A stretch of 64,000 bases of DNA. It comes from Pedobacter sp. BMA. Lineage in GTDB: Bacteria; Bacteroidota; Bacteroidia; Sphingobacteriales; Sphingobacteriaceae. The position numbers and the translations under genes were made by a program. Shown in pieces: positions 38,789 through 46,939 of this stretch (within the stretch, counting starts at the first letter, position 1; every line of letters begins with the position of its first letter). The notes beneath the pieces were generated by a model that worked only from the letters and a program-made list of their open reading frames with translations, was not told the origin of the DNA and did no database searches. The stretch spans positions 310,001 through 374,000 of the forward strand of contig NZ_LECU01000001.1 in the NCBI RefSeq assembly GCF_001027745.1, given 5' to 3'.

Positions 38789-40039
38789 CTACTCTACCGC
38801 TGCTCTGAACATCAAAGCGCCTACCGTTAAGTTTGTTCGGCTATCTATCAAAACGGCTGAACCATTCGCCCGGTTATCGTCGTACAGATCAAAGGCCAAA
38901 GCATCAGCCGTTTTAACAATTACGCGGCCGATATCGTTCAGTTTGAATTCATCTGCCTGATGTTTTTCAAGTGTATTGATGTCAACTTTGTGCAGGATTT
39001 CACTGATTTTGCATTTAGTTACCTTGCTGTTATGCTGAATGAGGTACATGATGGATGTATCCAGTGCACGTGTATCCATCCAGCATAAATCCGCTTCAAT
39101 TAATTTCGACTCCTGAGGTAAAGCAGATGCATTTACAATTGTGTCGCCACGGCTGATATCCACATCATCTTTAAGGTGGAGGGTAACTGACTGACCGGCA
39201 TGTGCCGCCACAGGGGTTAGATCAAAAAACTCAATTTTTTCTATCGTTGAACTTGCACCCGAAGGCAATATGGTCACCTTATCATTTAATTTGAATGTAC
39301 CACTGAGTACCCTTCCCGCATAACCCCGATAATCGTGCAATGCTTCTGTTTGAGGGCGAATTACCCATTGAACAGGCATACGCGCCAACTGAGATTTATC
39401 CAGATTATCCGTATCCACTTTTTCTAAAAAGTGCAACAGGCTTTCTCCACTATACCAATCCATCCGATCGGAATTCTGAACAATGTTATCGCCCTTTAAA
39501 GCACTTACCGGAATGTAGTTGACATCAGCAAGGTTAAGCTGTTGGGCCAACACTTTGTATTTATCTATGATGGTATTGTAAACTTCTGCGCTATAGTCTA
39601 CCATATCCATTTTATTGATCGCAACAACTACGTGCTTAATACCCAGTAAAGAAACTATATAGGAGTGACGAATGGTTTGCTCCACCACGCCATTTCTGGC
39701 ATCAATCAGAATAATGGCCAGATTGGCTGTCGATGCACCGGTAACCATATTTCGGGTATATTGAATATGCCCCGGGGTATCTGCGATAATGAATTTGCGT
39801 TTATCGGTCTGAAAGTATTTATAAGCAACATCAATGGTAATGCCTTGCTCGCGCTCCGCCCTTAAGCCATCAGTTAAAATAGCTAAATCAATTGTTCCAT
39901 CGTCGTTCTTACGGTTAGAGCTTTGTAAAGCTTCCAACTGATCAGCTAAAATGGAATCGGTATCATATAACAAACGGCCTATTAAGGTACTTTTACCATC
40001 ATCTACGCTGCCTGCTGTGAAAAATTTTAGAATGTTCAT
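38789..40039 (-). CDS. cysN: Sulfate adenylyltransferase, GTPase subunit
   Basis: A 416-residue translation-factor-type GTPase that couples GTP hydrolysis to ATP sulfurylase activity of CysD. G1 is GSVDDGKST (10-18), followed by 'DTPGHIQYTRNM' (G3) and 'INKMDMVDY' (G4); beta-barrel domains II and III make up the rest. There is no C-terminal APS-kinase (CysC) extension, consistent with direct APS reduction by the CysH encoded upstream. It is the last gene of the operon, 72 bases after cysD, and is followed by a strong terminator. Confidence 0.96.
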   Translation of the reverse strand: MNILKFFTAGSVDDGKSTLIGRLLYDTDSILADQLEALQSSNRKNDDGTIDLAILTDGLRAEREQGITIDVAYKYFQTDKRKFIIADTPGHIQYTRNMVTGASTANLAIILIDARNGVVEQTIRHSYIVSLLGIKHVVVAINKMDMVDYSAEVYNTIIDKYKVLAQQLNLADVNYIPVSALKGDNIVQNSDRMDWYSGESLLHFLEKVDTDNLDKSQLARMPVQWVIRPQTEALHDYRGYAGRVLSGTFKLNDKVTILPSGASSTIEKIEFFDLTPVAAHAGQSVTLHLKDDVDISRGDTIVNASALPQESKLIEADLCWMDTRALDTSIMYLIQHNSKVTKCKISEILHKVDINTLEKHQADEFKLNDIGRVIVKTADALAFDLYDDNRANGSAVLIDSRTNLTVGALMFRAAVE

Positions 40040-41136: not shown

Positions 41137-41844
41137 TTAAGCCTTTTCAGTAGCATGCAATCCACATTCTTTTTTACTTTGGTCTTCCCACCACCATCTG
41201 CCCGCTCTGAAATCTTCGCCCGGCTGTACGGCCCTGGTACAAGGGGCACATCCTATGCTTGGAAAACCTTTATCGTGCAATGTATTGTACACAATATTGT
41301 TTTCTTTAATATAGGTTTTTACGTCATCCAGTGTCCAGTCGAAAATCGGATGAAATTTAACTAAGTTATTACCTTCATCCCATTCCAGGTCGTGCATGTC
41401 TTCGCGGTTAGCGCTCTGCTCAGCTCTAATCCCCGTTACCCATATTTCATTACCTTTAAGCGCCCTTTTAAGCGGCTCAATTTTCCGGATGTAACAACAT
41501 TCCTTTCTGTTTTCAACCGATTCGTAAAAGCTATTCGGACCTTTGGTATTGACCATGTCCTGCAACAACTCGTTTTGCGGGTAGTATGCATGAATGGGTT
41601 TATTGTAGACTTCCAGCGTTCTGTTCCACACATAATAAGTTTCAGGGAATAACCTGCCTGTTTCCAGCGTAAAAACCTTAATTGGAATGTTATGCGCAAA
41701 AATCAGATGGGTAATGGCCTGGTCTTCCCAGCCAAAACTAGTGGAAAATATAATTTTGCCGGCAAATTTATCTGCCAGAAACTTCAACTTCTCTATTGTA
41801 TTTAAACCTGATAATTCTTGTTTTAGGCCCTCTACACTCATCAC
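41137..41844 (-). CDS. cysH: Adenylylsulfate reductase, thioredoxin-dependent (APS type)
   Basis: A 235-residue reductase of the CysH family reducing activated sulfate to sulfite. The adenylyl-binding fold is marked by 'IIFSTSFGWEDQAITHL' and 'WVTGIRAEQSANR'. The paired cysteines in 'KECCYIRK' and in 'GCAPCTRA' are the four [4Fe-4S] ligands that distinguish APS reductases from PAPS reductases, and the catalytic cysteine is in 'ECGLH' near the C terminus. Together with the lack of an APS kinase this indicates APS as substrate. Its ATG shares one base with the stop codon of the preceding siroheme-synthase/TSUP gene, so translation is probably coupled. Confidence 0.95.
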   Translation of the reverse strand: MMSVEGLKQELSGLNTIEKLKFLADKFAGKIIFSTSFGWEDQAITHLIFAHNIPIKVFTLETGRLFPETYYVWNRTLEVYNKPIHAYYPQNELLQDMVNTKGPNSFYESVENRKECCYIRKIEPLKRALKGNEIWVTGIRAEQSANREDMHDLEWDEGNNLVKFHPIFDWTLDDVKTYIKENNIVYNTLHDKGFPSIGCAPCTRAVQPGEDFRAGRWWWEDQSKKECGLHATEKA

Positions 41845-43355
41845 TATATTAATTTTAAAATAAACATCACTACGCTACGCAAACTTACAATCATTACGAT
41901 AATTCCAACTGCCACCATAATTGTTTTTGCTGAAATTTTGTTAGAAACCCGCGCTGCAATCGGAGATGCGACAGCACTACCGATAATTAATCCCAATACG
42001 GCTTCCCAATGTTTTCCACCCAGCATGGTAAAGAATGTAAGTGAGCTCAGGGTTGCAATAAAAAACCTGCTGATTTTTACAGTTCCAAGGGAAAATAACG
42101 GATGGCGTCCTCCGGCAATTAAGCTGGATAAAACGATAGATCCCCAGCCACCTCCAAAAGCAGCATCTATAAAACCACCAAAAAAGCCCAGCACCCCTAT
42201 CCTTTTAATTTTCTCATCCGCTTTTTTTCTTTTGATATTAAAAGCTTTCATCAGGATGATTCCGCCTAAAAACAAGGTATATACAGCTACAACAGGCTTT
42301 ACGTATGCACTGTAATGCTCTAAAGATGATAAGATGTATGCACCTAAAACAGCACCAATAATGGCCGGAAGAATTAAAATTTTAAACAATTTCCAGTTTA
42401 TATTCCCCATTCGGTAGTGCATCCAACCGGCAATACCATTGCTCATCACCTCTGAGATGTGGATTGCCATACTCGCCGATGCTGGTGGCAGTCCCATTGC
42501 CAGTGAAAAAGATGCTGTAGTTACACCGTACGACATCCCTATGGCTCCATCGATTAGGGCAAAGACAAAACCAGCCCCCAGGAACCAGTAAAACAAAGGA
42601 TCGATGTGAATCAAAAACGACTGGAATTCTGGTTCTGTGTTCCAAAGCGACACTCCAATTGCGCCAATCAACAAAATCGCAGCAAGCCAGATCAGCCATT
42701 TAATATTTCTTTCCGCAAAGCTTTTCCTGGGGTTAATTAAACTTTGGGTAACCTTATTGAGCTTTTTAACCTTCGCCGAAAAATCACCATTTAAAGTCTG
42801 GCGCAAAGCACTCATATTTTGTAAGGTTTCATCCAGCTCTGGCGGTAAACCCTCATTCAAAATCTGTTTTAAACGCTTTGCGATGGTCGGCGATTTCCCA
42901 TTGGTAGAGATGGCGATTTTCAGATCACCTTTCTGAACGATAGACCCCAGATAGAAATCACATAAATCGGGTTTATCGGCCACATTAATCAGCAGTCCCT
43001 TTTCATGGGTAACTACCCTGATCTCTTCATTTAAAATATTGTTGTTCGTTGCGGCAAAAACGATATCAATGTTCTCCAGATCAGAAACATCAAAACTTTT
43101 CTGCTTCACTTTAATCTGAGGATAATTTGCGATTAAAGCGTATACCTCGGGTGAAACGATTTCTGCAACAATGGTAATTTTAGCATGGTGGCTGTTGTTA
43201 ACAATAGCTGTTAACTTTTCCAGCCCTATATTTCCTGCACCAATTAATAATGTACGCAGCTTGTTCAGCTTTACAAAAACCGGAAAAAGCTGATTTCCTT
43301 TCTCATCTTCATGCAGGAAGGTTTCATTATCGGGTTGGTTAGGCAATATTTGCAT
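41844..43355 (-). CDS. Fusion of precorrin-2 dehydrogenase (CysG N-type) and TSUP exporter
   Basis: A 503-residue two-part protein. Residues about 20-215 match the siroheme synthase N-terminal module (precorrin-2 dehydrogenase and sirohydrochlorin ferrochelatase): 'FPVFVKLNKLRTLLIGAGNIG' region with GAGNIG at 39-44, 'ADKPDLCDFYLGSIV', and 'STNGKSPTIAKRLKQIL'. After a membrane helix (about 221-238), residues 255-503 form a TauE/SafE (TSUP) domain with about eight helices and two related half-motifs ('LIDGAIGMSYGVTTASF' and 'FIDAAFGGGWGSIVLS'). TSUP proteins carry sulfite or other sulfur anions. The gene sits among sulfite reduction genes and overlaps cobA by 17 bases. The C-terminal SUMT module of true CysG is replaced by the transporter. 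Confidence 0.9.
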   Translation of the reverse strand: MQILPNQPDNETFLHEDEKGNQLFPVFVKLNKLRTLLIGAGNIGLEKLTAIVNNSHHAKITIVAEIVSPEVYALIANYPQIKVKQKSFDVSDLENIDIVFAATNNNILNEEIRVVTHEKGLLINVADKPDLCDFYLGSIVQKGDLKIAISTNGKSPTIAKRLKQILNEGLPPELDETLQNMSALRQTLNGDFSAKVKKLNKVTQSLINPRKSFAERNIKWLIWLAAILLIGAIGVSLWNTEPEFQSFLIHIDPLFYWFLGAGFVFALIDGAIGMSYGVTTASFSLAMGLPPASASMAIHISEVMSNGIAGWMHYRMGNINWKLFKILILPAIIGAVLGAYILSSLEHYSAYVKPVVAVYTLFLGGIILMKAFNIKRKKADEKIKRIGVLGFFGGFIDAAFGGGWGSIVLSSLIAGGRHPLFSLGTVKISRFFIATLSSLTFFTMLGGKHWEAVLGLIIGSAVASPIAARVSNKISAKTIMVAVGIIVMIVSLRSVVMFILKLI

Positions 43356-44109
43356 ACTGTTTTACAAGTTTTTTAAATGATGGATGTAAGGAAACAACCT
43401 CGCCAAAAATCAACAGCGCCGGGGCTTTCAGGTTTTCAAGCTGAACAAGTTCCTCTATGGTTTCCACAACACCTACTACCAGCTTCTCATCTTCCGAGGA
43501 ACCATTCTGCACTACTGCAGCAGGAAGCTGATGTCTTCCGGCAGCCTTGAATATTTCAACAATTTTAGAAAGCTTTTTCAGGCCCATTAATATCAGTACC
43601 GTAGCATTCGATTCGGCCGCCTGGTAAATATCTGCCGAAACTTCTCCCGAAGTGGTGGTTCCCGTAATTACCCAAAAGCTTTCGCTCAACCCTCGGTGTG
43701 TTACGGGAATCTGCTGCAACCCGGGAACACCAATAGAACTTGATATACCGGGTATCACATCGACAGGAATACTATATGATGCAGCATAATCCAGCTCCTC
43801 GTAGCCCCTGCCAAAAACAAAGGGATCGCCACCCTTCAAACGCACCACATGGCCGTAGTTTAGGGCATAATCGATCATTAATTTATTGATGGTTTCCTGT
43901 GGATAGGAATGTTCTCCCGAACGTTTACCAACATATACTTTTATGGCTTCCGCCGGGGCATGCTGCAATAAGGCTTCATTAGTTAAAGCATCATACAACA
44001 CCACATCAGCCGCTTGTAAAGCCTTAACACCTTTCAGTGTCAGCAAATCCGGATCGCCGGGACCAGCTCCTAAAAGGGTTATTTTTGATTCTTTATTGTG
44101 GTTAATCAT
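43339..44109 (-). CDS. cobA: Uroporphyrinogen-III C-methyltransferase (SUMT)
   Basis: A 256-residue SUMT making precorrin-2 from uroporphyrinogen III and two SAM, supplying siroheme for the sulfite reductase encoded just upstream. Motifs are canonical: 'ITLLGAGPGDPDLLTLKG', 'GKRSGEHSYPQETIN', 'VVRLKGGDPFVFGRGYEE', 'PGISSSIGVPGLQQIPVTHRG' (as overlapping shorter matches) and C-terminal 'APALLIFGEVVSLH'. ATG at 44109 gives the usual N terminus. An alternative GTG at 44160 overlaps the sulfite reductase stop by two bases (GTGA) and would add 17 residues; it cannot be excluded. It overlaps the next gene by 17 bases. Confidence 0.94.
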   Translation of the reverse strand: MINHNKESKITLLGAGPGDPDLLTLKGVKALQAADVVLYDALTNEALLQHAPAEAIKVYVGKRSGEHSYPQETINKLMIDYALNYGHVVRLKGGDPFVFGRGYEELDYAASYSIPVDVIPGISSSIGVPGLQQIPVTHRGLSESFWVITGTTTSGEVSADIYQAAESNATVLILMGLKKLSKIVEIFKAAGRHQLPAAVVQNGSSEDEKLVVGVVETIEELVQLENLKAPALLIFGEVVSLHPSFKKLVKQYANIA

Positions 44110-44156
44110 AATTTTAAATTTTGGTTGTGGGGTTTCGATGTCAACTTTCTCAAACC

Positions 44157-46247
44157 TCACTTTACTAATACTGACCTCTTCTCTTTAATCTGCGCTAAAA
44201 ATGCTTCTGCCTGAGCAAAATAACTTTTCGCAAATTCGGCGCCCGGTTCATTTTTATTAATCTGAAGCACCAGGTCTGAGAAATTAGTCGGCAAACTGAA
44301 TTCATCTGTTTCTACATAGTGATTATCAAATTCTCTGATTACGCCAACCTGAGTACTGCTGTTTACGCCTTTATCTAATAATAACGATTTGGCAGCACTT
44401 ACAAAGGTTGCATACGTATGGTAAATCGCATCAGCATACGCTCCTTTATCCAGGTTCTGCTTTGCCCATCCAAATTTCTCATCAGCTTCCAAAAGCAGGG
44501 TTGCCACTAAATCAATCACTACGCCGGCACATTCGCCAACGCCAATTGCTGTGACAAACTGCTCCACATGGCCCCAGTCTACAAATTCTTCCTGCTTTAA
44601 CGAAGTTAAATCTGCCAGTGGTTTTAACAACTGGTAAAAATGATCTTTACCTTTCCTATCGTAATACTGGTGAAAGTTTTCACCTTCCTCATTACTGGCT
44701 TTAAAATCGTTCAAGATGTAGTGTAGCACACTGGTAGCTCTTTTAGAAGGCACTTTGATCACACGTTCTGCTACACGGCCAACACCGTTTCCAACCGTTC
44801 CGCCGCCCAGCATCACCTGAACTGCAGGAACTACTTTACCTTCTGCTTTAAGTGAACTGCCATGAAAACCGATCTCGGCCAGGCCGTGCTGACCGCAGGA
44901 GTTCATACACCCACTGATTTTGATTTTGATATCTTTCTCGTAGATAAACTCCGGAAAATCCGTATAGATCACCTCTTCCAGCACCTCGGCAAGGGTCATT
45001 GAATTGGAGATCCCCAGGTTACAGGTATCCGTACCAGGGCAAGTCGTAATATCTGCCAGACTATCGAAACCTGCCGTAGTAAAGCCAATTTTATTCAGCG
45101 CTGAATAAAGCGAAGGCAAAGCTTCCTTGCGTACAAATTTCAAAAGCAATCCCTGATTCTGCGTAATCCTGATTTCATCAGCCACGTATGGCCTGATGGC
45201 TTCCACAAAGGCACGTGCTTTATCCGTTTTAATATCCCCAACCTGGACTTTAACATACACAGCGAAGAAGCCTTCCTGCTTTTGTTCTACTACATTTGTG
45301 GCCGACCAGTGTTTGTAGTGTGCTTCATTTAAAATCTCCACTGCTGCATACTCCTGATCAACCGGCGAGGCAGGTTGAGGTACCGTGTCTCTGTCGATTG
45401 TAAAAGTTTTAACCTTGTTAGCAGTACGCTCCTCGGCAACCAGTCTTAATACCTCTTCTAATCCAAGTTTTTGCACCAGATATTTCAGGCGGGCCTTATT
45501 TCTGTTTGAACGTTCACCATAACGGTCGAATACACGGAGAACCGATTCAGTAAAAGGAATCAACTGATCTTCATGTAAAAAGTCATGAACTGCACTTGCT
45601 AAAAAAGGCTGTGCACCCAATCCACCTGCGAAAAGCACTTTAAAACCGCGTTCACCATTCTCATTGATTTTGGGAATAAAACCTAGATCATGTATGTAGC
45701 TGAATGCAGTGTCCTTATCGCTTGAAGAGAAAGAAATTTTAATCTTTCTACCCATTTCCTGACAAATCGGATTACGCAGGAAATATTTAAATACCGCATG
45801 GGCATAAGGTGAAACATCGAAAGGTTCATCCTTATCAATTCCCGAGTTGGGAGATGCCGTAACATTACGTACTGTATTTCCGCAAGCTTCCCGTAAAGTT
45901 ATATCATCTTGTTCCAGCTTGGCCCATAACTCAGGCGTTCTATCCAAACTCACATAATGCAACTGAATATCCTGACGGGTAGTGAGGTGCAAATTCCCAC
46001 TGCCATATTCATCGGCAATATCTGCAATACGCAATAACTGCTTAAAAGTCACCTTTCCGAAAGGTAATTTTATGCGAATCATCTGCACGCCCGGCTGCCT
46101 CTGACCATAAACGCCACGGGCCAATCGTAAACTTCTAAACTTTTCGTCGTGGATAGTTCCATCACGAAAAGCTTTAATCTTATTCTCTAAATCAATAATG
46201 TCCTGCTCGACAATAGGATTTTCGAGTTCTGTTCTGAAACTTTGCAT
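44157..46247 (-). CDS. Siroheme sulfite reductase with C-terminal extension
   Basis: A 696-residue sulfite reductase hemoprotein reducing sulfite to sulfide. Two ferredoxin-like half-domains and two siroheme/[4Fe-4S] domains fill residues 1-560. 'HLTTRQDIQLH' is the siroheme-binding region and the cluster ligands are Cys403 and Cys409 ('TCPGTDTCNLG') and Cys447 and Cys451 ('SGCMNSCGQHG'). After residue about 565 comes an alpha-helical extension ('GAYADAIYHTYATFVSAAKSLLLDKG') not part of classical CysI, probably a HEPN-like helical domain. The electron donor subunit is not in the window. It is the first structural gene of the operon, preceded by a Cys-codon leader ORF and terminator. Confidence 0.93.
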   Translation of the reverse strand: MQSFRTELENPIVEQDIIDLENKIKAFRDGTIHDEKFRSLRLARGVYGQRQPGVQMIRIKLPFGKVTFKQLLRIADIADEYGSGNLHLTTRQDIQLHYVSLDRTPELWAKLEQDDITLREACGNTVRNVTASPNSGIDKDEPFDVSPYAHAVFKYFLRNPICQEMGRKIKISFSSSDKDTAFSYIHDLGFIPKINENGERGFKVLFAGGLGAQPFLASAVHDFLHEDQLIPFTESVLRVFDRYGERSNRNKARLKYLVQKLGLEEVLRLVAEERTANKVKTFTIDRDTVPQPASPVDQEYAAVEILNEAHYKHWSATNVVEQKQEGFFAVYVKVQVGDIKTDKARAFVEAIRPYVADEIRITQNQGLLLKFVRKEALPSLYSALNKIGFTTAGFDSLADITTCPGTDTCNLGISNSMTLAEVLEEVIYTDFPEFIYEKDIKIKISGCMNSCGQHGLAEIGFHGSSLKAEGKVVPAVQVMLGGGTVGNGVGRVAERVIKVPSKRATSVLHYILNDFKASNEEGENFHQYYDRKGKDHFYQLLKPLADLTSLKQEEFVDWGHVEQFVTAIGVGECAGVVIDLVATLLLEADEKFGWAKQNLDKGAYADAIYHTYATFVSAAKSLLLDKGVNSSTQVGVIREFDNHYVETDEFSLPTNFSDLVLQINKNEPGAEFAKSYFAQAEAFLAQIKEKRSVLVK

Positions 46248-46268: not shown

Positions 46269-46300
46269 AAAAAATGCTTCTCCGGTTACTGAGAAGCATT
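46269..46300 (-). terminator. Attenuator terminator in the sulfite-reductase leader
   Basis: On the minus strand AATGCTTCTC (46300-46291) and GAGAAGCATT (46282-46273) form a perfect 10-bp stem with an 8-base loop, ending in a run of six T (46274-46269). It lies 22 bases before the sulfite reductase ATG, inside the leader, so it must be avoided for the operon to be expressed. Confidence 0.85.
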
Positions 46301-46333
46301 CAAATGTTTACATCAAATCATTTAATACCCCTC
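46291..46333 (-). promoter_or_regulatory. Antiterminator competing with the leader terminator
   Basis: On the minus strand GAGGGGTATTAAATG (46333-46319) starts directly after the leader ORF stop codon and pairs with CATTTGAATGCTTCTC (46306-46291): 15 pairs, 12 Watson-Crick and 3 G-U, with one bulged G (46301) and a 12-base loop. Its 3' arm contains the whole 5' arm of the terminator, so the two structures exclude each other. Confidence 0.8.
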
Positions 46334-46402
46334 TTACTTTGTTTCGCAACAACAGCGCATGGAGAACATATGGTTTTGATTGTATGTAAATTTGAAGTTC
46401 AT
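46334..46402 (-). CDS. Cysteine-codon leader peptide of the sulfate-assimilation operon
   Basis: A 22-codon ORF ending in TAA (46336-46334), between the Rrf2 gene and the sulfite reductase gene. Its C-terminal part reads MFSMRCCCETK: three consecutive cysteine codons (TGT TGT TGC, 46354-46346), although cysteine is normally rare. Translation can start at the first ATG (46402), four bases after a TATATTTG -7 box and therefore leaderless, or at internal ATGs at 46369 or 46360. All keep the Cys run. The stop codon abuts the antiterminator's 5' arm. With Cys-tRNA scarce, a stalled ribosome leaves that arm free and transcription proceeds; with ample Cys the ribosome at the stop codon covers it and the terminator forms. 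The function is inferred from this layout. Confidence 0.85.
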   Translation of the reverse strand: MNFKFTYNQNHMFSMRCCCETK

Positions 46403-46406
46403 GCTC

Positions 46407-46429
46407 CAAATATATAAAGTATATAGAAA
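46407..46429 (-). promoter_or_regulatory. Leader promoter with shared palindromic element
   Basis: The minus strand has TATATTTG (46414-46407) overlapped by ATATAC-TTT-ATATAT (46424-46410). 20 of 23 bases equal 38028-38050 at the SUMT paralogue. No -33 TTG is visible at 17-23 bases, which suggests dependence on a regulator. Confidence 0.6.
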
Positions 46430-46492
46430 TAGTCGTAGTTTTTTATGAAAAAAATTACTAACCATTATGTTGAAGTGACAAAGAGGAAGTTT

Positions 46493-46939
46493 TTATAGGA
46501 TATCGATACCCAGCTTCAGCGAATGTTCGCGACCGATTACATCTGCAACACTGGTTTCACTTAATACTTTCAACGTTGCATCTCTTACATCAATAAAAGC
46601 GCTTCGGATACCGCAGGTTTTCTCATCCTCACATTCATCACACTTGTGGTAGAAATTCAAGCTGGCACATGGAACCATGGCAATAGGTCCGTCGGTTACA
46701 CGCATCACCTGAACCAAAAGTATATCTTCAGGTTTTTTGTTTAAGCTGTAACCACCACCAGCACCTTTTTTACTGTATAAAAAGCCTGCGTTACGCAAAT
46801 CAAGAAGGATTTGTTCGAGAAACTTTTTGGGGATATGCTCCTCCTCAGCAATCTTGGAGATTTGCATCGGTGGTTTTTCTACATTTTTTCCAAGCGCAAC
46901 AAGCGCTTTAATGGCGTATTTTGTCTTTTTGGATAGCAT
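46493..46939 (-). CDS. Rrf2-family transcriptional regulator
   Basis: A 148-residue regulator with the Rrf2 winged helix at the N terminus ('MLSKKTKYAIKALVALG', 'ISKIAEEEHIPKKFLEQIL' and 'SKKGAGGGYSLNK', residues 1-68). Four cysteines (91, 100, 103, 109) follow in the position where IscR-type members bind an iron-sulfur cluster, so a redox- or Fe-S-responsive mode is possible. CymR, another member, represses cysteine synthesis genes in Firmicutes. Here the gene ends 90 bases upstream of the cysteine leader ORF in the same orientation, so the sulfate-assimilation operon is the obvious target. Its own promoter (TAGCTTTG) carries a partly similar TACAAAGCTA word, so autoregulation is possible. 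Confidence 0.9.
   Translation of the reverse strand: MLSKKTKYAIKALVALGKNVEKPPMQISKIAEEEHIPKKFLEQILLDLRNAGFLYSKKGAGGGYSLNKKPEDILLVQVMRVTDGPIAMVPCASLNFYHKCDECEDEKTCGIRSAFIDVRDATLKVLSETSVADVIGREHSLKLGIDIL

What the first reader, a model, noticed from the sequence alone, without database searches (positions are those of the whole stretch)
46269..46414. Cysteine-codon attenuator controlling the sulfate-assimilation operon
Seen directly: a 22-codon ORF with Cys-Cys-Cys codons; an antiterminator arm starting on the base after its stop codon; a 15-pair antiterminator; and a mutually exclusive intrinsic terminator with six T, all within 150 bases upstream of sulfite reductase. The first Cys codon is 21 bases from the antiterminator arm, so a stalled ribosome (leading edge about 14 bases ahead) leaves the arm free, while one at the stop codon masks it. 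This is the classical amino-acid attenuation geometry applied to cysteine. Cysteine-rich leader ORFs are known to me in actinobacteria; I do not know of a described case in Bacteroidota, and leaderless translation of the leader would be a further novelty.
Basis: partly seen in the sequence, partly recalled or inferred. Interest (0 to 1): 0.95.

Follow-up and report, generated by a model that had tools for sequence, protein, structure and literature searches.

The report
Cysteine-methionine attenuator for sulfate assimilation
Just before its sulfate-assimilation genes a Pedobacter-like bacterium, like many relatives in the class Bacteroidia before the matching gene, carries a very short reading frame rich in cysteine and methionine codons followed by a predicted stop-transcription hairpin, which would likely act as a switch that turns these genes on when the cell runs short of sulfur amino acids.

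Summary
On the minus strand a 22-codon ORF (MNFKFTYNQNHMFSMRCCCETK) is followed, from the base after its stop, by an arm able to form a 15-pair antiterminator that excludes an intrinsic terminator, ahead of sulfite reductase, siroheme, CysH, CysD and CysN genes. In the genus (Pedobacter by contig match) 95 of 140 loci have a short ORF exactly 4 nt after the TAnnTTTG box; 94 of 95 have Cys, 91 of 95 a terminator-like hairpin. Cys-cluster ORFs with terminators precede homologous genes in other taxa too: 26 of 79 named loci (7 of the 26 Pedobacter), 0 of 79 on the opposite strand. Two additions: the spacing puts the predicted transcript start on the A of the AUG (likely leaderless), and internal Met is enriched (9.5% against 2.2% in control ORFs), so both sulfur amino acids are likely read. 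About 30% of the genus lacks the leader, one leader has no Cys, and most antiterminators are individually no better than shuffles. No response to Cys or Met was tested. Classical ribosome-mediated attenuation, new variant; my searches showed none in print for Bacteroidota.

The parts
46407..46439 (-). conserved promoter region ACTACGACTATTTCTATATACTTTATATATTTG; its last 8 bases (46414-46407, TATATTTG) are the TAnnTTTG -7 box; the upstream part perhaps also an Rrf2-type operator (inferred)
   Evidence: a loose pattern for this box is found in 94 of 95 leader loci and 41 of 45 loci without the N4-ATG leader; TAnnTTTG at -12 to -5 is the sigma-A box of Flavobacterium psychrophilum (PMC9723704 passage)
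46402..46402 (-). predicted transcription start, the A of the leader ATG (leaderless mRNA)
   Evidence: TTTG-N4-ATG spacing plus the -12 to -5 placement of the box in Flavobacterium; spacing 4 in 95 of 140 genus loci
46334..46402 (-). leader ORF, 22 codons, MNFKFTYNQNHMFSMRCCCETK, stop TAA 46336-46334
46346..46354 (-). three Cys codons TGT TGT TGC, presumed regulatory
   Evidence: Cys present in 94 of 95 genus leaders
46358..46369 (-). stretch with internal Met codons M12 (46369-46367) and M15 (46360-46358)
   Evidence: Met enrichment
46319..46333 (-). antiterminator 5' arm (arm A), first base directly after the stop codon
46291..46306 (-). antiterminator 3' arm (arm B); 46300-46291 is also the terminator 5' arm
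46269..46300 (-). intrinsic terminator: stem 46300-46291/46282-46273, loop 46290-46283, T run 46274-46269
44157..46247 (-). first gene of the presumed operon: NIR/SIR-type sulfite reductase
   Evidence: PF01077 1.5e-45, PF03460 1.5e-37; no NCBIfam equivalog cut-off reached
43339..44160 (-). uroporphyrinogen-III C-methyltransferase (siroheme)
   Evidence: PF00590; TIGR01469
41844..43355 (-). CysG N-terminal siroheme synthase domain with a TauE/SafE domain
   Evidence: PF01925, PF13241; TIGR01470
41137..41844 (-). CysH, APS/PAPS reductase
   Evidence: PF01507; NF002537, TIGR02055
40112..41017 (-). CysD, sulfate adenylyltransferase small subunit
   Evidence: TIGR02039 4.7e-129
38789..40039 (-). 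CysN, sulfate adenylyltransferase large subunit
   Evidence: TIGR02034 3e-163
46493..46939 (-). upstream Rrf2-family regulator; best equivalog model is CymR, below its cut-off
   Evidence: PF02082 8.5e-37; NF047409 CymR 1.1e-24, 87.1 bits against a cut-off of 195; IscR 8.8e-19

Best explanation
The 155 bases before the sulfite reductase gene encode a 22-codon leader peptide with a Cys-Cys-Cys run and two internal Met codons, followed by sequences that can pair either as an antiterminator or as an intrinsic terminator, and this is predicted to be a ribosome-mediated transcription attenuator that would switch on the sulfate-assimilation genes when charged Cys-tRNA, and likely Met-tRNA, runs short. 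Shown by sequence and comparison: the ORF, the enrichment of Cys and Met codons, the constant TTTG-N4-ATG spacing, conservation of the terminator, a statistical excess of complementarity between the stop-codon region and the terminator arm, and recurrence of Cys-cluster ORFs with terminators before homologous sulfite reductase genes in other families. Inferred: transcription starts on the A of the AUG and the ORF is translated without a 5' leader; with enough Cys the ribosome reaches the stop, covers arm A and the terminator forms; when it stalls at Cys (or Met) codons arm A is free, the antiterminator captures the terminator 5' arm and RNA polymerase reads on. An Rrf2 (CymR-like) protein perhaps controls initiation at the same promoter as a second layer.
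For: Genus: 95 of 140 loci have TAnnTTTG-N4-ATG ORFs of 18-23 codons; Cys >=1 in 94, >=2 in 85, terminator-like hairpin in 91; mean Cys 2.47 against 0.54 in 326 control ORFs; at least two Cys within six residues in 77 of 95 against 21 of 326. Both Cys codons are used, TGT 168, TGC 67. Terminator: 520 cells in 52 sequences, 99.8% paired, 3 pairs changed on both sides, 0 of 500 shuffles as high on four of five measures. Own linker x own terminator arm across 51 lineages: -3.17, permutation sd 0.35, 0 of 20000; upstream segment -0.26 (3315 of 20000). Arm A under a ribosome at the stop codon: mean fraction 0.77 against 0.49 for shuffled linkers, at least half covered in 101 of 125. Window: antiterminator -12.0, terminator -12.9 kcal/mol. 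Other families: at least two Cys before a terminator-like hairpin in 9 of 26 loci L158-L183; Cys-cluster ORF + terminator in 28 of 80 unnamed loci against 4 of 80 on the opposite strand and in 26 of 79 named loci against 0 of 79. Met: internal 163 of 1710 residues against 135 of 6043 in controls, ATG in frame 181 of 1876 positions against 9 of 1781 in each other frame; Met after the first Cys, where it cannot be the start for that codon, 56 of 552 and 53 of 487. The model R1, which needs no sulfite reductase gene, matches 66 of 144 genus genomes at 67 places, 65 of them beside this gene. No Rfam family reaches its gathering score in the window.
Against: 45 of 140 genus loci were counted without the N4-ATG leader; of these L052 is my indexing error (R1 finds its leader in G135), L013 and L057 have ATA for ATG, L022 GTG, and L003 has a stop in the N4 frame, which leaves 40 without it. 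L041 has no Cys; L067 looks decayed. Antiterminators are individually weak: 36 of 125 at p<=0.05, median p 0.126, and the CAGGAGCC arm common in one Pedobacter group is mostly p 0.3-0.6; the own linker was the best of 51 for its arm only 4 times. In some distant families the best arm A lies well upstream of the stop (to -61), which a stop-codon ribosome would not cover. Reversed linkers keep a weaker signal (-1.04, 28 of 20000), so composition explains part. One covariation measure, further pair types, is reached by 465 of 500 shuffles. The whole-leader minimum-energy fold does not show the antiterminator. Outside the genus I looked only upstream of sulfite reductase homologues, so the association there is by design. 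Nothing here shows transcription, translation or a response to Cys or Met.
Confidence: 0.85

Rival explanations
1. Control is by the adjacent Rrf2 (CymR-like) regulator at the promoter alone; the leader ORF and hairpin are passengers.
For: Rrf2 gene directly upstream; a promoter box CTACTA...TATATTTG is kept in 41 of 45 genus loci counted without the leader, so the operon can do without an attenuator.
Against: A passenger would not keep Cys in 94 of 95 leaders, a constant N4 start and a paired terminator, nor recur as Cys cluster plus terminator in other families. Both layers can coexist.
Confidence: 0.07
2. The attenuator is real but reads Cys only; the Met codons are alternative internal starts or have another cause.
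For: Many Met codons stand directly before the Cys run, as an internal start would; in L003 and L057 the Cys run could be reached from an ATG only internally.
Against: Met is about as frequent after the first Cys (56 of 552 genus, 53 of 487 other) as before it (106 of 1053, 49 of 501); ATG is 9.6% of in-frame positions against 0.5% in the other two frames.
Confidence: 0.4
3. The ORF encodes a functional Cys/Met-rich micropeptide (for example metal binding) that happens to share the transcript.
For: Cys- and Met-rich peptides can bind metals (general knowledge).
Against: Sequence outside Cys and Met, length (18-23 aa in the genus, longer elsewhere) and Cys spacing drift, while the ORF-stop-hairpin arrangement stays; in the genus 65 of 67 R1 places stand beside this gene.
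Confidence: 0.04
4. Leader translation acts through Rho or through translation of the first gene, as proposed for actinobacterial Cys leaders, and the hairpin is not the switch.
For: Actinobacterial cys leaders lack terminator hairpins and Rho was proposed (PMC1262725 passages).
Against: Here a terminator-like hairpin with a T run is present in 91 of 95 genus leaders.
Confidence: 0.04

Closest known systems
Classical ribosome-mediated amino-acid attenuators (trp, his, thr leaders of Proteobacteria; recalled; the start of the abstract of PMC1183508 seen in a listing)
   Same: short ORF with codons of the pathway product, overlapping antiterminator and intrinsic terminator; a stall frees arm A, a stop-codon ribosome would cover it
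   Different: Cys plus Met codons, sulfate assimilation, Bacteroidota, predicted start on the AUG, different antiterminator sequences in different families
Polycysteine leaderless sORF attenuators of mycobacteria (Canestrari 2020; paper not held; described in passages of PMC9031893 and PMC9094748)
   Same: leaderless short ORF with contiguous Cys codons; ribosome speed depends on cysteine
   Different: different phylum; a terminator with a competing antiterminator here, whereas the mycobacterial cys leaders of PMC1262725 have no conserved terminator hairpin (passages); Met codons here, not looked for there
uORFC-8-2 motif before cysS in Rhodobacterales (PMC8632094 passages)
   Same: uORF with tandem Cys codons and a U-run terminator, proposed ribosome-mediated attenuation
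   Different: alphaproteobacterial, before cysteinyl-tRNA synthetase; no leaderless start or Met enrichment in the passages seen
Leader-peptide candidates in Flavobacterium psychrophilum (PMC9723704, section 19 read) and genome-wide leader-gene lists that include Bacteroidetes (PMC4833913 passages)
   Same: same phylum; leader-peptide attenuation suggested before amino-acid biosynthesis operons
   Different: no Cys or sulfate-assimilation leader named in what I saw; the supplementary tables, which might list such ORFs, could not be read

Membership tests
Ribosome-mediated transcription attenuator (classical) | short leader ORF enriched in codons of the pathway's product | tested here: met
   Cys in 94 of 95 genus leaders, mean 2.47 against 0.54 in control ORFs
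Ribosome-mediated transcription attenuator (classical) | intrinsic terminator between leader and first gene | tested here: met
   by sequence: 91 of 95 genus leaders; helix 99.8% paired in 52 sequences
Ribosome-mediated transcription attenuator (classical) | mutually exclusive antiterminator whose 5' arm is covered by a ribosome at the stop codon | tested here: met
   in the window by sequence and folding; across lineages a statistical excess only: 101 of 125 at least half covered, 36 of 125 individually p<=0.05
Ribosome-mediated transcription attenuator (classical) | readthrough responds to the charged tRNA | not testable with these tools
   needs expression data
Mycobacterial polycysteine leaderless sORF attenuator | contiguous Cys codons in a leaderless sORF | tested here: inconclusive
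   Cys run shown; leaderless start only predicted from spacing
Mycobacterial polycysteine leaderless sORF attenuator | homology with the mycobacterial leaders | not tested
   different phylum; convergence assumed
Known Rfam family (T-box, SAM riboswitch and others) | match at or above the gathering score | tested here: not met
   0 matches in the 64-kb window

The most novel reading that the evidence does not exclude
Class Bacteroidia uses a widespread sulfur-amino-acid attenuator in which one leaderless leader mRNA, starting on its own AUG, reads both Cys and Met codons to gate sulfate assimilation, while the antiterminator is rebuilt in lineage after lineage.
Probability: 0.5. Interest if true: 0.75.

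Novelty: new variant of a known kind. Interest (0 to 1): 0.66.

Why it matters
Leader-peptide attenuation is told mainly from Proteobacteria, and to my knowledge sulfate assimilation in Bacteroidota has no described amino-acid sensor (recalled, plus the searches named in Tried and rejected). If right, this gives a directly testable sulfur-amino-acid sensor in many families of a major class, a natural system in which leaderless initiation is coupled to transcription termination, and a leader that reads both sulfur amino acids. Natural variants with a lost start, lost Cys run or lost leader offer ready-made controls.

Tried and rejected
Known RNA family: none at gathering score. A second copy of the leader in the same genome: only itself; in the genus R1 found one extra weak place in G034 and one in G138, a genome without a detected sulfite reductase gene. 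R1 was built from one group of Pedobacter leaders and misses others, so its 66 of 144 is not the genus total. 'Stalled against stop-codon ribosome' pairing probabilities (137 of 143 higher when stalled) are partly trivial because more RNA is free, so I rely on shuffles and permutations; that script ended with an error after printing. Testing arm A against the terminator stem alone gave 22 of 126 at p<=0.05 and missed antiterminators that reach into the loop; one search used stem plus loop. Antiterminator covariation column by column was not counted because arm A shifts register in alignment A2. Literature: the listings showed no Cys or sulfate-assimilation leader for Bacteroidota; I read passages or one section of eight papers (PMC8632094, PMC9723704, PMC7366714, PMC13236596, PMC1262725, PMC4833913, PMC2965389, PMC9031893) and of PMC9094748; supplements and most subscription papers were out of reach.

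Rows dropped or chosen: searches left out L083, L024, L194, L185 as probably wrong picks, plus duplicates and linkers under 15 nt; the 51 lineages were picked by hand; A2 holds 52 of 55 core leaders (duplicates out). Of the family search (230 of 251 genomes with a match) and the class search (106 of 395) I examined only the loci L158-L263. L338 was too short (79 of 80). Seven of the 26 positives are Pedobacter records, some the same genomes as in the genus set; a few positives may be chance picks. In one search, 89 of 101 leaders in loci up to L146 and 17 others showed the N4 spacing; that first set holds a few class loci and the others a few Pedobacter records. L052 was mis-indexed.

Full report
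What is there. On the minus strand, a 33-base promoter region ends in TATATTTG (46414-46407); four bases later begins a 22-codon ORF, MNFKFTYNQNHMFSMRCCCETK (46402-46334). The base after the stop starts an arm, GAGGGGTATTAAATG, that can pair with CATTTGAATGCTTCTC to give a 15-pair antiterminator; the second part of that partner is the 5' arm of a terminator with a run of six T (46274-46269). The sulfite reductase ATG follows at 46247. Folding the stretch before the terminator 3' arm gives the antiterminator at -12.0 kcal/mol; the terminator alone gives -12.9; with the first 11 nt of arm A hidden, only the terminator forms. The equilibrium fold of the whole 141 nt shows the terminator and pairing between ORF and linker, not the antiterminator. 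The downstream genes are sulfite reductase, uroporphyrinogen methyltransferase, a CysG-N/TauE protein, CysH, CysD and CysN, that is, sulfate assimilation with its siroheme.

Chance. In the whole window this is the only ORF of 12-32 codons with the TAnnTTTG-N4-ATG start and the only Cys-cluster ORF with a terminator-like hairpin behind it. The antiterminator duplex is matched by 1 of 300 shuffled linkers and 2 of 300.

The genus. The genome belongs to a genus of which 145 genomes were searched, 140 with a sulfite reductase match. I examined 140 loci. 95 have an ATG exactly 4 nt after TAnnTTTG that opens an ORF of 18-23 codons. Of these 94 have at least one Cys, 85 at least two, 46 at least three, and 91 have a terminator-like hairpin in the last 90 nt. 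Control ORFs of like size in the same regions have 0.54 Cys on average, leaders 2.47. Exceptions: L041 has no Cys; L026, L065, L097 and L116 fail the terminator scan. 45 loci were counted without the leader: L052 is my indexing error (R1 finds its leader in G135), L013 and L057 have ATA in place of ATG, L022 GTG, L003 a stop in the N4 frame; the other 40 lack it, L067 looking decayed. A loose promoter-box pattern is kept in 41 of these 45, so promoter control is more widespread in the genus than the attenuator.

Other families. With a fixed scan (ORF up to 60 aa, at least two Cys within six residues, stop 5-120 nt before a terminator-like hairpin) the sense strand scored 28 of 80 unnamed family and class loci and the opposite strand 4 of 80; in named GTDB genomes 26 of 79 against 0 of 79, 7 of the 26 being Pedobacter. 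In an earlier, similar scan 9 of 26 loci L158-L183 had at least two Cys in such an ORF. Clear cases include Reichenbachiella agariperforans (GCCQPCCCC), Mucilaginibacter aquatilis (CCICICCC), Chitinophaga species and a MAG with seven Cys in a row; names are. Most loci showed none, the eight Sphingobacterium and two Pontibacter records among them. Outside the genus I looked only upstream of sulfite reductase homologues, and did not check their downstream genes.

Structure. In 52 genus sequences the terminator helix is paired in 99.8% of 520 cells with changes on both sides at three pairs; four of five measures exceed all 500 shuffles, the fifth (further pair types) does not. The antiterminator is less regular: arm A shifts and its partner may extend into the terminator loop. 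Each leader on its own often fails a shuffle test (36 of 125 at p<=0.05, median 0.126). Taken together the signal is strong: for 51 hand-picked lineages, linkers fit their own terminator arm better than those of others (-3.17, permutation sd 0.35, 0 of 20000), although the own linker is the single best only 4 times of 51; a reversed linker gives -1.04 (28 of 20000) and an upstream segment -0.26 (3315 of 20000). Arm A sits where a ribosome at the stop codon would cover it (mean 0.77 of its length against 0.49 in shuffled linkers; at least half in 101 of 125). In some distant families arm A lies far upstream of the stop, which the simple picture does not explain.

Leaderless start. In Flavobacterium psychrophilum the sigma-A box TAnnTTTG lies at -12 to -5 (PMC9723704, passage seen). 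With four bases between box and ATG, +1 falls on the A. The constant N4 spacing in 95 genus loci is thus best read as a conserved leaderless leader; this carries the Flavobacterium spacing over to another order. Leaderless mRNAs are a minority in this phylum (5.5% in that paper; 3.7% of 5' UTRs under 10 nt in Bacteroides thetaiotaomicron, PMC7366714 passage).

Cys and Met. Internal Met is 9.5% of residues in 86 distinct genus leaders against 2.2% in 321 control ORFs; ATG occurs at 181 of 1876 in-frame positions and at 9 of 1781 in each other frame; Met is the commonest non-Cys neighbour of Cys, 119 cases, 29.6%. It is about as frequent after the first Cys as before it, so it is not merely a start codon for the Cys run. 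Since sulfide from this pathway feeds both Cys and Met (general knowledge), the leader plausibly senses both. This is inference.

Second layer. The gene upstream is an Rrf2 regulator whose best equivalog model is CymR, below that model's cut-off. The conserved box upstream of the -7 element is kept where the leader is absent; I infer an Rrf2 operator.

One site. A covariance model of one Pedobacter group (R1) matched 66 of 144 genus genomes at 67 places, 65 of them directly before the sulfite reductase gene by coordinates. In the window's genome the leader DNA matches only itself.

Literature. Cys-codon leaders are known: mycobacterial leaderless polycysteine sORFs (Canestrari 2020, not held, described in passages), actinobacterial cys leaders without terminator hairpins (PMC1262725 passages), and a Cys-Cys uORF before cysS in Rhodobacterales (PMC8632094 passages). 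In Bacteroidota, leader-peptide attenuation before amino-acid operons was suggested in F. psychrophilum (PMC9723704 section 19), and leader-gene lists including Bacteroidetes exist whose tables I did not see (PMC4833913 passages). The listings of my searches showed no Cys or sulfate-assimilation leader for this phylum.

Verdict. A real, conserved attenuator of a known kind with new features, recurring in many families of the class. Confidence 0.85 for Cys-responsive attenuation, about 0.5 for the Met part; both untested by experiment.

Noticed in passing
L017, L018, L090 (genus loci), region between the TATATATTT box and the sulfite reductase ATG: In place of the leader a long inverted repeat (in L017 CCAAATCATTATTTG ... 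CAAATGATATTTGG) follows the promoter directly, without a T run.
   Followed up: no
window 46439-46407 and the same box in genus loci: A box of about 30 nt, CTACTA...TATATACTTTATATATTTG, is strongly conserved, also in loci without the attenuator; some loci carry a palindromic form TCTATATAGAATATATAT. Possible Rrf2 operator.
   Followed up: partly
   Followed up: partly
L041 (G072): Leader frame and terminator kept but no Cys codon (MKFNFTPEQVYSLPMQYRKVK).
   Followed up: no
L158, L159, L290 (L290 is a Mucilaginibacter record): The last codons of the peptide (Ser-Arg-Leu-stop) fall in the predicted antiterminator arm A, which pairs with the terminator loop, so coding and pairing constraints overlap.
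   Followed up: partly
window 41844-43355: One ORF joins a CysG N-terminal siroheme synthase domain and a TauE/SafE sulfite exporter domain.
   Followed up: no
G034:C216:40485-40578: A second, weak R1 match (E 8.6e-4) on a contig other than the one with the sulfite reductase gene.
   Followed up: no
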